This document shows, in pieces, positions 1-5,144 of a DNA stretch of 39,540 nt (position 1 is the first letter of the stretch; each line of letters starts with the position of its first letter). The notes beneath the pieces were generated by a model that was not told where the DNA came from, ran no database searches, and saw only the letters and a program-made list of their open reading frames with translations. Position numbers and translations under genes: made by a program. The stretch lies in the NCBI GenBank assembly GCA_024690635.1, contig JAILOW010000096.1, forward strand, positions 1 through 39,540, written 5' to 3'. Origin of the DNA: Butyrivibrio sp. (GTDB lineage Bacteria > Bacillota_A > Clostridia > Lachnospirales > Lachnospiraceae).

Positions 1-2502
1 GGTCTTTGCCTTGGTGGTCTTGACCTGAACCTTTTTAACTGAGGTTCTCTTGCCATCGGCTGTGGTAAAGATGATCCTGTCATCCTTAAGTCCAACGGTC
101 ACATCCGTATCTGCCTTGATGTTGCCCTTAAGAAGCTCCTCTGCCATAGCATCCTCAATGGTTGACTGAATGGCTCTCTTAAGAGGTCTTGCACCCATCT
201 TGGCATCGGAGTACTTGCTTACAAGGTATTTCTTAACCGCAGGAGAGATGGTAAGGTTGATGCCCATCTGAGTTTTGCATCTCTTTGCAAGATTCTGAGA
301 AAGCAGTGTAACGATATCCATCATCTCTTTTTCAGTCAGTGTATGGAATACCATGATCTCATCGATACGGTTGATGAACTCGGGTTTAAAGAGTTTTTTA
401 ACCTCTTCCATAACTCCGGACTTCATATCTTCATAGTCTCTCTTGGCATCACTGCCGGCACCAAAACCAAGCTTTTTGGGATCTACTATTCTCTGGGCTC
501 CCACATTGGAAGTCATGATAAGGATGGTATTTTTGAAGCTGACCTTTCTGCCCTTGGCATCTGTGATATGTCCGTCATCAAGAACCTGTAAAAGCACGTT
601 AAAGATATCGGGGTGAGCCTTTTCTATCTCATCAAAAAGGATAACGGAATAAGGATGGCGCCTTACCTTTTCGGAAAGCTGTCCTCCCTCGTCGTATCCA
701 ACGTATCCGGGCGGTGATCCGATCATCTTGGATACGGAGTGGCCTTCCATGTACTCCGACATATCAACTCTTATGAGGGCATTCTCATCTCCGAACATTG
801 CCTCTGCAAGAGCCTTGGAAAGCTCGGTCTTACCAACACCTGTAGGTCCCAGGAACAGGAATGAACCAATGGGCCTGTTGGGATCCTGAAGTCCGACTCT
901 GCCTCTTCTGATAGCCTTGGAAACAGCTTTTACCGCATCCTCCTGACCTATTACTCTCTTGTGAAGAACGGATTCAAGCTTAAGAAGCTTTTCCGATTCT
1001 TTTTCCGCGATCTTTTTTACAGGGATTCTTGTCCACTCTGCAACAACCTCGGCGATATCATTTTCATTTACGACAAAGCTTGAGCTTAGCTGTTTTTTCT
1101 TTTCAGCATTTTTGGTCCTTGCCAGCTTATTCATAACAACTGTCTGTTCTTTACTCAGTAGCCCTGCAGCTGTGAAGTCACTGTTTTTAAGAGCATCCTC
1201 AATCTTTTTATCATAATCATCCATTTCCTTTTCAAGCGCTTTTACCTTGGGTGAAAATCCCATGGTACCAAGCCTTACTGCAGAAGCCGCCTCATCTATA
1301 AGATCGATGGCCTTATCGGGAAGATTTCTGTCATTTATATATCTCTCAGAAAGCTCTACCGCAGCCTTTAAAGCTTCCGGAGTTATGGTAACCTTGTGGT
1401 GCTCCTCGTACTTGCCCACAACGCCCTTTAATATCTCTGTAGCTTCTTCTTTTGTGGGCTCATCCACATTTACAGGCTGGAAACGTCTCTCAAGAGCCGC
1501 ATCCTTTTCCACATATTTGCGATACTCGGTGATGGTGGTAGCTCCGATCATCTGAATCTCGCCTCTTGCAAGAGAGGGCTTTAAGATATTGGAAGCATCG
1601 ATGGCGCCTTCCGCACCTCCGGCACCGATAAGAGTATGCATCTCATCCACAAAGAGAATAATATTGCCGTCATCAGCAACCTCTTTGATGACCTTCTTGA
1701 TCCTCTCCTCAAACTCACCTCTGTACTTGGATCCGGCGATCATGCCAGAAAGATCAAGAGTCATAAGTCTCTTGTTCTGAACGGTAAGAGGAACATCTCC
1801 CGTCACTATTCTCTGGGCAAGGCCCTCCACCACTGCGGTCTTACCAACACCGGGTTCACCGATAAGGCAGGGATTATTTTTAGTCCTTCTTGAAAGGATC
1901 TGTATCACTCTCTTTATCTCACGCTCTCTTCCGATAACGGGATCAAGCTTGTCTTCATCTGCAAGAGCTGTCAAATCGCGGCTGTACTGAGCCAGCATGG
2001 AAGCTTTCTTGCCGGTCTTCTGAGGAGCATTCTTTTTGCCAAGGTCCTCTTTTACAAGATTGGGATCCTCGCCCATGGCTGCCAGGGTCTCGGCGTAGAT
2101 CTTCTGGGCAGGAACATTCAGTGTGCTGATAAGTCTCACGGCAACGTTCTCTCCCTCTTTTATAAGAGCAAGAAGAATATGCTCTGTTCCCGTCTTGTCA
2201 GAATGAAAACGCTCTGCAAGCTTGTGTGCTTCCTCGAGGACCTTTTCCGCTCTTGGTGAAAAACCGTCTTTGTCCAGAGTACGAACACTGCTGTCAGGAA
2301 CGATAAGGTCCTTTATCATATCCATCATGCGGTTTTCATCGATGCCGTTATCGATAAGTATCCTGGAAGCAACACTACCGTCCTCAAGGATAAGTCCCAT
2401 GAGGATGTGCTCTGTACCAACATAATTAAGTTTCAGGCTTCTGGCTGTCTTTTTTGCAAGCTTCAGCGCATCTGCCGCCATCACTGTATATTGATGATCC
2501 AT
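1..2502 (-). CDS. clpC: ATP-dependent Clp protease ATP-binding subunit ClpC (3' end outside window)
   Basis: This is an AAA+ unfoldase that feeds substrates to ClpP in the cytoplasm. The reading frame is open from the ATG at 2502 to the window edge, 834 codons without a stop, so the C-terminus is missing. Two Clp-N repeats are visible ([13 protein letters not shown] near residue 30, [14 protein letters not shown] near 110). The first AAA module has Walker A GEPGVGKT near residue 214 and Walker [10 protein letters not shown] coiled middle domain follows, then a second AAA module with GPTGVGKTE near 551 and LFDEIEKAH, and a sensor region with FINRIDE. The start is supported by AGGAGAG six bases upstream. 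A GntR-type gene ends 36 bases upstream on the same strand, so the two are probably co-transcribed. ClpC proteins usually have about 810-830 residues, so little should be missing beyond the edge. Confidence 0.96.
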
Positions 2503-2538: not shown

Positions 2539-2916
2539 TTACGAATTAGCCTCATAGTTGTCGTAAAGCTGATCCACCAGTGCATGAATATCATCTCTGC
2601 CTATTCCCTTGCAGATGGCTCTTGCCAGCACCACAGCAAGCTCGCTTCTTGCTTCCTTCAAAGCCTGAAGCTTGTTGATATCAATGGCTATGACTGCGCC
2701 GCGCCTTCTGTCGATCTTTACAAATCCGTCCTGCTGGAGTATCGAATAGGCTTTATTCACCGTATGCATATTGATGCCTATGGTCTCAGCCAGCTGCCTC
2801 ACGCTTGGAAGCTGCTCACCTTCACGAAACTGGGATGTGGCGATGCCCAGTATGATCTGGTTACACAGCTGGACATATATGGCTTCATCACTGTTAAAAT
2901 CTATCTCTATGATCAT
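2539..2916 (-). CDS. GntR-family (YtrA-like) transcriptional regulator
   Basis: A 125-residue one-component regulator. The N-terminal two thirds is a GntR winged helix (YVQLCNQIILGI, then the recognition region LPSVRQLAETIGINMHTVNK and the wing FVKIDRRRGAVIA). Only a short helical tail follows, which is typical of the YtrA subfamily; it lacks the large FadR, HutC or MocR effector domains. The start at 2916 has a clear AGGAGG eight bases upstream. The gene lies directly upstream of clpC, the position ctsR takes in many Firmicutes. Autoregulation and control of clpC are inferred from this position and from repeats near the promoter (see 2938-2976). The ligand, if any, is unknown. Confidence 0.9.
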   Translation of the reverse strand: MIIEIDFNSDEAIYVQLCNQIILGIATSQFREGEQLPSVRQLAETIGINMHTVNKAYSILQQDGFVKIDRRRGAVIAIDINKLQALKEARSELAVVLARAICKGIGRDDIHALVDQLYDNYEANS

Positions 2917-2937
2917 CTGTCACGCCTCCTTCTCTTG

Positions 2938-2976
2938 TGATACCTTTAGTATAACACATGATACAGATTTTTCCAC
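2938..2976 (-). promoter_or_regulatory. Candidate gntR-clpC promoter and operator
   Basis: Reading the minus strand, TATACT (2948-2953) is a good -10. The matching -35 (GTGGAA, 2971-2976) is poor and lies inside the outer edge of the giant palindrome. TGATAC occurs twice on the plus strand (2938-2943 and 2959-2964), 21 bp apart, or two helical turns. GTAT and ATAC also form a partial inverted repeat over 2949-2964, covering the -10. That arrangement fits an operator for the GntR protein. This is a by-eye prediction. Confidence 0.35.
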
Positions 2977-3520
2977 TCCCTCATTTCTTCGCCCCCGCGC
3001 CGGCTTTCCCGGCGGCTTTTTCTTACTGCTTCTTCCCGATAAAAAACAGATTTCCCGTCGGCTCCCTCGCAGAAATTCATGGCATAAAAATAGCGCCTTT
3101 CCCGGTTACGGCTCTAAACTCCCTTTGCTTTCCTACGGTGCACAGCCGCTTCCGGATAAGCTTTCTGTTTTTGAGTCATTAGCGTCGGGCGCCATTTTCT
3201 AATGCTCCAAAAGCCGTTTTTCCCCGTGCCCGCAGAGACAGAATGTCGAACGGGCGCATTAAAAGGAAAACGGCTGGAGCATCTGAGAAAATGTGCGTTT
3301 GACGGTCGCGAAAAAACAGAAACTTATCCGAAAGCGGCGACACCTGTGGGATCAAAGGTCAGACACACGAGCCGTGAAAAACCGGAAAAGACGCTATTTT
3401 GACGCTCATGGATTTTGCTGCTCACTCACAGAGCGGGAAATCCCTTTTTTTATCGGTCAGTCACAGATATTAAAAAGCCGCCGGGAAAGCCGGCGCGGGG
3501 AATGAGGGGGTGAAAAAATC
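2966..3520. repeat. Giant imperfect palindrome (about 555 bp), non-coding
   Basis: The whole gap between the gntR promoter and the SH3-gene terminator folds back on itself around position 3242. Paired blocks, outside to inside, are: 2966-2972 with 3512-3520; 2993-3021 with 3472-3500 (29 bp, perfect, GC-rich); 3036-3057 with 3433-3456; 3078-3114 with 3369-3410; 3121-3150 with 3331-3359; 3145-3172 with 3311-3338; 3202-3223 with 3265-3282; and 3226-3232 with 3251-3257. The terminal loop is about 18 nt (3233-3250). Mismatches and small bulges are spread along the arms. No reading frame has a ribosome binding site or recognisable protein. It could be a large hairpin RNA, a foldback or MITE-like element with very long inverted repeats, or an inverted duplication. 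No convincing target duplication was found. Confidence 0.85.
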
Positions 3521-3541
3521 CGCAGGCCTTGCGGCCTGCGG
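3512..3541 (-). terminator. Rho-independent terminator after the SH3-domain gene
   Basis: A perfect 9-bp stem (CCGCAGGCC, 3520-3528, with GGCCTGCGG, 3533-3541) has a 4-base loop and is followed on the minus strand by a run of six T. It lies 13 bases past the stop of the SH3-domain gene. Its T-run overlaps the outer edge of the giant palindrome. Confidence 0.9.
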
Positions 3542-3554
3542 AACCAGGTTGGTT

Positions 3555-5120
3555 TTATTTGTCGTCGTCGAGATCAAGGAACTCAAATTCGAAGTCGTCC
3601 TCATCTCCGATGAAGTTTCTGCTCTTACGTCTGGGAGCTTCTTCCTTTACGGCTGCTCTGCGGCCTCCTGACTCATAGTCATCGGCAGGTCTTCTTGAAG
3701 GTCTTACAGGTCTGTCATCCTCGGCGTATCTGTCCTCGGAAGGCCTCCTTGAAGGTCTGTCCTCTGCCTGTCTCTCAGGTCTTTCAGCTCTCTCTTCAGC
3801 ATGTCTTGAAGGTCTTCTTACAGGTCTTTCTTCGTCCTGAACAGGTCTTCTTGCGCTGCTTGTTCTTGCAGCTCTGTCATCTGCTGTTCTGTCAGGTCTT
3901 ACAGTTCTTTCCTCTGCGCCTGCTCTCTCGGAAGCTCTTCTGGCTCTGTATCTGTCATCATCCTCATCATCGTCGTCATCTCTTGCACGCTTTCTGGGTG
4001 ATGAATAACGGTCGTACTCTTCTTCCTCTTCCTCATCCTCATAGTAGAGAGAGTCTCTGAGCTTGAGTGCCATAAAGATAAGTCCTACAACAAGTGCTGC
4101 AATGATAACCGCAAGAACAATAAGTATTGTCTTGTAGGTGTTGTTGGTCTTAACAAGTTTTGATACGGCATCGCTGCTCTTTGCAGCCTCGATAAGCTCG
4201 TTAACCTTTACTCTGTAGCCTTCTACATTATCGTAAAGATACCAGGTTCCTGTTCCCTCATCTGTAAGGTAAACAAGTGAATAGGTTCCGTCACCTGCTT
4301 CGCTGGTAACTGCAGATTCTGATGAAGATTCCTCGCTTTCGGAAGCTTCTGCATCCTCTGAAGCCTCTGCATCCTCTGAAGTCTCAGCATCTTCGCCTTC
4401 TGCACCATCTACATTCTCTGCGCTTTCAGCGTCATCTCCGCCTTCTGCATTCTCTGCAGGAGCGCTGTCTCCGATTGTCAAAAGATCGCTTCTTACAAAG
4501 CCCGTCTTGTTGTTGCTTCCAAAGGTTACCTGATACCAGGTCTTGTTATCTGTGCCCTTTGCTTCGCCTGTAACGGTGACTGTTTCACCCTTTTTAGCTT
4601 TTCCAACGGAATCATAAGCGGTTCCTGCACCCTGACGAACATTAACGCTGTCAGCTGATATTGTTGCACTTCTTGGATCTGTTGTTGTAACTGTTGTGGT
4701 AGGAAGTGCAGCTGCCTGAGATTTGTTCTCTGCAGGCTTGGAGTCTTCCGTAGTCTTAACTTCTGTTGCATCAGAATCATTCTTGGTCTCTGATGAAGAG
4801 CTTGATGAGCCGCCCTCTTTCTTTACAAGATCGCTTCTTACATAGCCGTAGTCGCTCTTATTTACGCGGATCTTGTACCATACATATCCGGAAGCATCAG
4901 TAGCCTCATCCACGATGTCTACCTTGTCTCCGTTTCTGAGACTTGAAACCTGTGTAGCTGTGGTGCTGGCGGATTCTCTTACCTTAACGTTTTCCGTATT
5001 TACTGTTCCCGTTGTGGGAGTGTAAGCAAAAGCTGTTAATGAAGCTCCCACTAAAACGCTTGCTGCAATTGCCAGTGAAAGCGCTGTGGCACCCATTCTC
5101 TTTCCTATTCTTTTTATCAT
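3555..5120 (-). CDS. Secreted, membrane-anchored protein with two bacterial SH3 domains
   Basis: A 521-residue protein. Residues 1-32 form a signal peptide (MIKRIGKRMG, hydrophobic core, AFA cleavage site). Two SH3b domains follow (about 38-105 and 150-220, each with V[KN]VR...Y..V...G.V.....W and GYVRSDL or GFVRSDL). Next come an acidic Glu/Ala/Ser linker, one TM helix (about 328-352, LIVLAVIIAALVVGLIFMALK) and a long charged tail rich in Arg, Glu and Asp. The layout puts the SH3b domains outside, where they often bind peptidoglycan, and the low-complexity tail in the cytoplasm. The ATG at 5120 is chosen because AAGGAGGG sits just upstream; an in-frame TTG at 5135 would overlap that site. 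purD ends 24 bases upstream, so the gene may be the last one of the pur operon. The function is unknown. Confidence 0.88.
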   Translation of the reverse strand: MIKRIGKRMGATALSLAIAASVLVGASLTAFAYTPTTGTVNTENVKVRESASTTATQVSSLRNGDKVDIVDEATDASGYVWYKIRVNKSDYGYVRSDLVKKEGGSSSSSSETKNDSDATEVKTTEDSKPAENKSQAAALPTTTVTTTDPRSATISADSVNVRQGAGTAYDSVGKAKKGETVTVTGEAKGTDNKTWYQVTFGSNNKTGFVRSDLLTIGDSAPAENAEGGDDAESAENVDGAEGEDAETSEDAEASEDAEASESEESSSESAVTSEAGDGTYSLVYLTDEGTGTWYLYDNVEGYRVKVNELIEAAKSSDAVSKLVKTNNTYKTILIVLAVIIAALVVGLIFMALKLRDSLYYEDEEEEEEYDRYSSPRKRARDDDDDEDDDRYRARRASERAGAEERTVRPDRTADDRAARTSSARRPVQDEERPVRRPSRHAEERAERPERQAEDRPSRRPSEDRYAEDDRPVRPSRRPADDYESGGRRAAVKEEAPRRKSRNFIGDEDDFEFEFLDLDDDK

Positions 5121-5144
5121 ATTTCCCTCCTTCAAAACTTCCCG

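What the first reader, a model, noticed from the sequence alone, without database searches (positions are those of the whole stretch)
2966..3520. A 555-bp imperfect palindrome fills a whole intergenic region
At least eight nested complementary blocks, in correct mirrored order, fold this gap into one hairpin with an 18-nt loop; one block is 29 bp perfect (2993-3021 with 3472-3500). Ordinary long palindromes in bacteria are lost quickly, and an inverted duplication left alone would keep uniform similarity or decay. Here well-conserved blocks alternate with bulges, as if pairing itself is kept. No protein-coding frame fits. It may be a large hairpin RNA, a foldback/MITE-like element with very long terminal repeats, or a structural chromosome element. 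It sits between a strong terminator and a promoter whose -35 lies in its outer arm, so it could also affect gntR-clpC expression.
Basis: partly seen in the sequence, partly recalled or inferred. Interest (0 to 1): 0.85.

Follow-up and report, generated by a model that had tools for sequence, protein, structure and literature searches.

The report
Giant mobile DNA hairpin in Butyrivibrio
A gap between two genes of a Butyrivibrio-like gut bacterium holds one copy of a scattered, gene-less DNA repeat that can fold back on itself over more than 500 bases, and its two halves appear to be kept matching by copying at the DNA level rather than because the hairpin works as an RNA.

Summary
The palindrome is real: 2966-3520, fold -315.6 kcal/mol, z -19.7, the only long hairpin in the window. 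It is one copy of a family. A profile built from 32 Butyrivibrio copies, none from the window, finds both arms (E 1.2e-17 and 2e-10); the window copy lacks the ~210-position apex. The family has no evident gene, spans about 595-660 bp and is multi-copy (15 places in one genome; 15, some partial, in another). One ~660-bp insertion has a clean empty site in a relative. Pairing is kept while sequence changes: 56 of 89 consensus pairs show double compensation. Yet there is no RNA-strand signature: G-U 354 against A-C 322 and near-equal energies on both strands, unlike 28 tmRNAs of the genus. Double changes exceed independence 7.6-fold, and apices appear inverted between some copies. Best reading: a MITE-like mobile palindrome, larger than the classic ~100-200-bp ones, whose arms are probably homogenised by template switching (inferred). 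No mobilising enzyme was found. The -35 box in its outermost arm belongs to the gntR promoter.

The parts
2966..3520 (.). Whole imperfect palindrome; element proper probably about 2976-3512
   Evidence: inner limits inferred from relatives
2993..3021 (.). Left arm of the 29-bp perfect outer stem
   Evidence: corresponds to the copy-specific outer stems of other copies
3472..3500 (.). Right arm of the 29-bp perfect outer stem
3251..3449 (-). Core arm, family profile positions 39-233
   Evidence: E 1.2e-17
3041..3224 (-). Core arm, family profile positions 445-618
   Evidence: E 2e-10
3225..3250 (.). Short apex; profile positions 234-444 (branched apex of other copies) are missing here
2998..3014 (+). 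Inward-facing terminator-like site in the outer stem (this copy; not a family trait)
3479..3495 (-). Mirror-image inward-facing terminator-like site
2948..2975 (-). gntR promoter: -35 TGGAAA (2970-2975), 16-bp spacer, -10 TATACT (2948-2953)
   Evidence: -10 region conserved in relatives
3519..3542 (-). Terminator-like hairpin of the upstream SH3-domain gene
2539..2916 (-). GntR-family regulator
1..2502 (-). Clp ATPase of ClpB/ClpC type, runs off the window
3555..5135 (-). Bacterial SH3-domain protein gene

Best explanation
The palindrome is a divergent, apex-less copy of a mobile element family without an evident gene (MITE-like, about 595-660 bp, spread through Butyrivibrio) that inserts into intergenic DNA. 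SHOWN: dispersed copies, presence and absence at orthologous sites, one deletion footprint, pairing conserved while sequence diverges, no RNA-strand preference; inversion of the apex between some copies is well supported for part of the comparisons. INFERRED: an unidentified enzyme moves it in trans. After insertion the arms stay complementary at the DNA level because during replication one arm folds back and serves as template for the other (quasipalindrome template switching), which at times also inverts the apex. It need not make an RNA. Its effect on gntR and the Clp gene is probably only to add distance between the upstream terminator and the promoter.
For: Family profile without the window hits both window arms in order, E 1.2e-17 and 2e-10; best shuffled hit E 0.17. 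15 places in G004 and 15, some partial, on one G035 chromosome; 22 of 79 genus genomes match one copy. Insertion of ~660 bp in G015, clean empty site in G037, ~60-bp footprint in G009. Consensus pairs: 2818 of 3114 cells Watson-Crick, 56 of 89 pairs doubly compensated, slid partners 24-37%. Eight close copies: 63 double changes against 8.3 expected; single changes G-U 33, A-C 39. G-U 354, A-C 322 over 37 copies; energies -69.1 and -71.3 on the two strands; tmRNA control -98.1 and -58.4, G-U 398, A-C 4. Template switching is reported to create and maintain hairpins (PMC8794818, passages) and to homogenise arms and invert spacers (PMC8604942, abstract).
Against: No enzyme or autonomous partner found. 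Only one doubtful target repeat. Subfamilies have quite different ends, unusual for elements cut by one transposase. Imperfect bulges persist, which unopposed arm correction should erase. Consensus folding, which favours G-U-tolerant columns, gave more G-U than A-C on both strands (103:59 and 192:66; 108:44 and 107:36 for 19 diverse rows). Double changes are counted per sequence, so shared ancestry inflates them; 11 of the 63 are not Watson-Crick. Only 11 of 28 apex comparisons score higher flipped, several by small margins.
Confidence: 0.6

Rival explanations
1. A large structured RNA that is multi-copy; pairing is kept by selection on the RNA hairpin, which might be cut by RNase III or shield neighbouring transcripts.
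For: Strong covariation, a branched apex with conserved layout read from copies, very stable fold. Consensus folding gives somewhat more G-U than A-C.
Against: In the unbiased count G-U equals A-C (354:322; 33:39); both strands fold about equally well; tmRNA behaves very differently. No Rfam match.
Confidence: 0.12
2. An element that moves or replicates through a folded single-stranded or cruciform stage, like parvovirus-type terminal hairpins in principle; arms are rewritten in that stage rather than in chromosomal replication.
For: Branched apex and apparent inversion between copies, opposite orientation at an orthologous site, copy-specific outer stems.
Against: No replication or HUH-type enzyme was looked for by family or found; flipping is also expected from template switching. 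The parvovirus likeness is recalled, not tested.
Confidence: 0.12
3. The outer stem is a pre-existing target hairpin, such as a terminator, into whose loop the element inserted, as IS1272-type elements target stem-loops.
For: Outer stems are copy-specific (21 of 26 above the 95th percentile); at two G009 sites and one G039 site relatives have terminator-like hairpins instead. IS1272 targets inverted repeats (PMC5678879, abstract and passages).
Against: At the clean empty site in G037 no hairpin stands and the outer stem came with the insertion. The window copy and the L142 copy sit beside a separate terminator. Outer stems of two G039 copies look homologous by eye.
Confidence: 0.1
4. A local inverted duplication that is decaying, or an assembly artefact.
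For: Arms are imperfect; several family copies lie at contig ends.
Against: Homologous palindromes at unrelated sites in many assemblies. Close copies in G004 are 89-94% identical while the arms within a copy pair over about 70% of columns, so the imperfection predates copying.
Confidence: 0.03

Closest known systems
Bacterial MITE-like palindromic repeats (ERIC, YPAL/RU-2, RUP, NEMIS)
   Same: No autonomous gene, intergenic, multi-copy, single long stem-loop, thought to be moved in trans
   Different: Those are given as ~100-200 bp (PMC2229807, passages); this family is ~595-660 bp with a branched apex and copy-specific outer stems
Longer stem-loop repeat families, e.g. Ppu-1 of Pseudomonas putida (617-bp model)
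   Same: Similar length, multi-copy, predicted to fold
   Different: Seen only as table rows in passages of PMC2267715; sequence and anatomy not compared
IS1272/IS1182-type insertion sequences
   Same: An association with stem-loops at the insertion site was considered
   Different: They carry a transposase gene and replace target inverted repeats (PMC5678879); here no gene was seen, and the clean empty site has no hairpin
REP/REPIN elements
   Same: Dispersed palindromes without genes
   Different: REPs are 20-40 bp (PMC3733652, search listing only); a link to a RAYT enzyme was not tested here

Membership tests
Butyrivibrio long-palindrome family (defined here) | Both arms match the family profile in order and on one strand | tested here: met
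   E 1.2e-17 and 2e-10
Butyrivibrio long-palindrome family (defined here) | Copy-specific, near-perfect outer stem | tested here: met
   29 bp perfect in the window; 21 of 26 other copies
Butyrivibrio long-palindrome family (defined here) | Branched apex of ~210 positions | tested here: not met
   Absent in the window copy; taken as a truncated or divergent member on the strength of the arms
Bacterial MITE | Dispersed multi-copy element without an autonomous gene | tested here: met
   no long ORF was assigned to the element, and the 143-aa frame across 2771-3202 overlaps gntR and its promoter
Bacterial MITE | Presence or absence at orthologous sites | tested here: met
Bacterial MITE | Target-site duplication | tested here: inconclusive
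   One 7-bp repeat with a mismatch
Bacterial MITE | Ends shared with an autonomous transposon | tested here: not met
   Two end motifs searched: 11 of 11 matches in 3 genomes lie in known copies; of 5 matches in 8 genomes, 4 are copies and 1 an isolated remnant. Other genomes and other ends not searched
Structured RNA gene | G-U favoured over A-C on one strand | tested here: not met
   354:322; tmRNA control 398:4
Structured RNA gene | Transcribed | not testable with these tools
   No RNA-seq
IS1272/IS1182 type | Encodes a transposase | tested here: not met
   No such frame in the window gap
IS1272/IS1182 type | Target is a stem-loop | tested here: inconclusive
   Not at the clean site; suggestive at three others

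The most novel reading that the evidence does not exclude
Butyrivibrio hosts a class of mobile DNA whose heritable property is its fold: a ~600-bp palindrome with a branched, flipping apex and a hypervariable outer stem, moved or re-copied through a single-stranded or cruciform stage that rewrites one arm from the other, so that base pairing is inherited at the DNA level with neither an RNA nor a protein product.
Probability: 0.15. Interest if true: 0.85.

Novelty: new variant of a known kind. Interest (0 to 1): 0.6.

Why it matters
Covariation is often read as evidence for a functional RNA. This family shows strong covariation without strand preference, so it could serve as a natural test case for separating selection on RNA from arm-to-arm copying of DNA. 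It also suggests that very long palindromes, usually thought unstable in bacteria (general knowledge, not tested here), can persist and multiply within a genus.

Tried and rejected
Plasmid and phage collections gave no match to the palindrome; Rfam gave none at gathering thresholds. Plain blastn of the palindrome against the 80 gntR loci found nothing, which first looked like a one-off. Hairpins upstream of gntR in L001, L004, L005, L053 and L059 were taken for relatives; L001 proved to be a separate ~197-bp family, and none of the 80 loci matches the family-1 profile. The terminator-loop target idea was weakened by the true empty site. My first reading of the G015/G009 pair as an inverted duplication of the target was wrong: G009 keeps a deletion footprint. 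Inward-facing terminator-like sites of the window copy are not a family trait: 2 of 34 and 0 of 34 other copies on the two sides, as in shuffles. My note after said that all weak hits sit in 640-760-bp hairpins; the count is 8 of 13 (577-765 bp), with 2 shorter and 3 without. Family 2, tested the same way, does show a mild strand difference (-74.7 against -62.6; unbiased G-U 32, A-C 23).

Rows dropped: 5 of 37 copies (three partial, two whose match was split or rearranged) were left out of the profile; nine divergent copies and the window were not in the outer-stem test of 26; 3 of 37 copies were left out; of all copies found, 36 rows entered the pair count.

Papers: searches showed none on such a Butyrivibrio or Lachnospiraceae palindrome family; one search listed 12 of 246 papers, and subscription journals and bioRxiv preprints are largely outside the library. 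Searches were for mechanisms.

Full report
OBSERVATION. The gap between an SH3-domain gene (3555-5135, minus) and the gntR-Clp gene pair (2539-2916 and 1-2502, minus) is filled by an imperfect palindrome at 2966-3520. A folding alignment that ignores G-U pairs returns exactly those ends, 200 pairs, score 72; nothing else in the window scores 14 or more except an outward extension of it, and 5 shuffled windows reached 13.5-19. The RNA fold is -315.6 kcal/mol, z -19.7, 0 of 100 shuffles as good.

LOCAL COMPARISON. Eighty loci with a related GntR were fetched, the best 80 of 567. They are labelled Butyrivibrio, other Lachnospiraceae and a few other names. Of the 16 Butyrivibrio loci printed, ten show the end of the SH3 gene, a terminator-like hairpin and the gntR promoter without a long palindrome. 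L001 and L004 have other palindromes there, and L002, L005, L009 and L015 have different upstream DNA (reading). The family profile finds no member in the 80 loci, 883 kb, at E 1e-3. So the palindrome was gained in the window's lineage or lost in others. The -10 region of the promoter is conserved throughout, and TTGAAA or a similar -35 stands in several loci that lack this palindrome.

A FAMILY. Searching 29 genomes with the palindrome gave matches in 11 at E<=0.1. G004, the genome of Butyrivibrio sp. INlla14, gave 19 matching pieces at 15 places; at four of these both inner arms matched, 244-261 bp apart. A 16th place appeared. One G004 copy as query matched 22 of 79 genus genomes at E<=1e-3, although 7 candidates or fewer were scored per genome. 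On a 3.55-Mb contig of G035 there were 27 matches at 15 places, some partial. A profile from 32 of 37 collected copies, without the window, hits the window at 3449-3251 (E 1.2e-17) and 3224-3041 (E 2e-10), same strand and right order; the best shuffled hit was E 0.17, and the reversed window gave none at E<=10. Profile positions 234-444, the apex, are missing in the window. Of 13 further weakly matching family loci (about 30-290 aligned bases), 8 sit in hairpins of 577-765 bp, 2 have shorter ones (one cut by a contig end) and 3 have none.

ANATOMY. A typical copy has an outer stem specific to the copy, terminal inverted repeats, a core of imperfect arms, and an apex with one small GC-rich side hairpin in each arm and a short apical stem (read). 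In 26 copies the 40 bases outside the ends pair with their own partner (mean score 15.3) better than with partners of other copies (mean 6.1, maximum 19.5); 21 of 26 exceed the 95th percentile. The window's 29-bp block is its outer stem. In this copy it also contains a mirrored pair of inward-facing terminator-like sites, which is not a family trait.

MOBILITY. At one site G015 carries about 660 bp. G037, 94 and 90% identical in the flanks, has a clean empty site, and G009 keeps about 60 bp of the left end as a deletion footprint. A possible 7-bp repeat with one mismatch flanks the insertion. Two G009 sites hold copies where G015 has terminator-like hairpins. At the L141 site G039 and G035 hold different copies and G010 a terminator-like hairpin; the L142 copy of G036 lies between a terminator and a promoter where other genomes have short gaps or other DNA. 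At the L108/L117 orthologous site the element lies in opposite orientation. No element with an internal gene and the same ends was found in the few genomes searched.

WHY THE ARMS MATCH. On 36 rows 2818 of 3114 cells are Watson-Crick; 56 of 89 pairs have two Watson-Crick types differing on both sides, each in at least two rows; slid partners pair in 24-37%. The rows are related, so these are counts of sequences and not events. In eight close copies 63 cells changed on both sides (52 Watson-Crick) against 8.3 expected; single changes gave G-U 33, A-C 39, other 54. Over 37 copies the unbiased count is G-U 354, A-C 322. Consensus energies on the two strands are -69.1 and -71.3, or -78.9 and -76.5 for 19 diverse rows. 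Consensus folding itself favours G-U-tolerant columns, and on both strands it gave more G-U than A-C: 103:59 and 192:66. Twenty-eight tmRNAs of the genus gave -98.1 and -58.4, with G-U 398 and A-C 4 on the true strand. So pairing is conserved, but not with the strand asymmetry of an RNA. In a study of RNA genes 78.5% of two-step compensations affected G-U pairs (PMC8794818, passages). Template switching is described as homogenising arms and inverting spacers in yeast (PMC8604942, abstract). Among eight G035 apices 11 of 28 pairs score higher flipped, clearest for L119 and L169 against L159 (49 and 49 same way, 85 and 82 flipped); other margins are small. I therefore favour template switching as the force that keeps the arms matched. 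That step is inferred.

WHAT REMAINS OPEN. The enzyme, the target rule, why bulges persist, and why subfamilies differ so much at their ends. The closest described kind is the MITE-like palindrome such as ERIC or YPAL, given as ~100-200 bp (PMC2229807, passages). Longer stem-loop families are tabulated, for example Ppu-1 with a 617-bp model (PMC2267715, passages), so length alone is not unprecedented.

Noticed in passing
L001:5717-5919: At the same place upstream of gntR another Butyrivibrio carries a different palindrome of ~197 bp with sharp terminal repeats; 63 matches in its genome, 40 of 190 candidates scored, with covarying stems.
   Followed up: partly
L004:5741-5929, L005:348-493, L022:5844-5930, L053:385-662, L059:5564-5799: Further long imperfect hairpins upstream of gntR, none matching the family-1 profile.
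   Followed up: partly
G035:C1, 800 kb scanned (L197-L236): About 18 long hairpins with at least 35 pairs in 800 kb, of several kinds.
   Followed up: partly
window 2930-2960 and L001-L025 upstream of gntR: An imperfect inverted repeat around the -10 box (TGTG...TATCACA on the minus strand) is conserved and may be a GntR operator.
   Followed up: no
L272 (G009:C4:81310): An isolated 46-base left end of a family-1 copy, probably a deletion remnant.
   Followed up: partly
L185:1260-1824 and 3723-4284: Two family copies, 97% alike and in opposite orientation, flank about 1.9 kb in G009.
   Followed up: partly
G025:C33, C35, C16 and G032:C18 contig ends: Family copies lie at contig ends, so the palindromes probably break assemblies and are undercounted.
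   Followed up: no
outer stems listed and window 2966-3010: The 5' arm of many outer stems looks pyrimidine-rich by eye, on either strand of the palindrome.
   Followed up: no
L005:1-330: Roughly 130-base tandem repeats near the contig end upstream of gntR, seen by eye.
   Followed up: no
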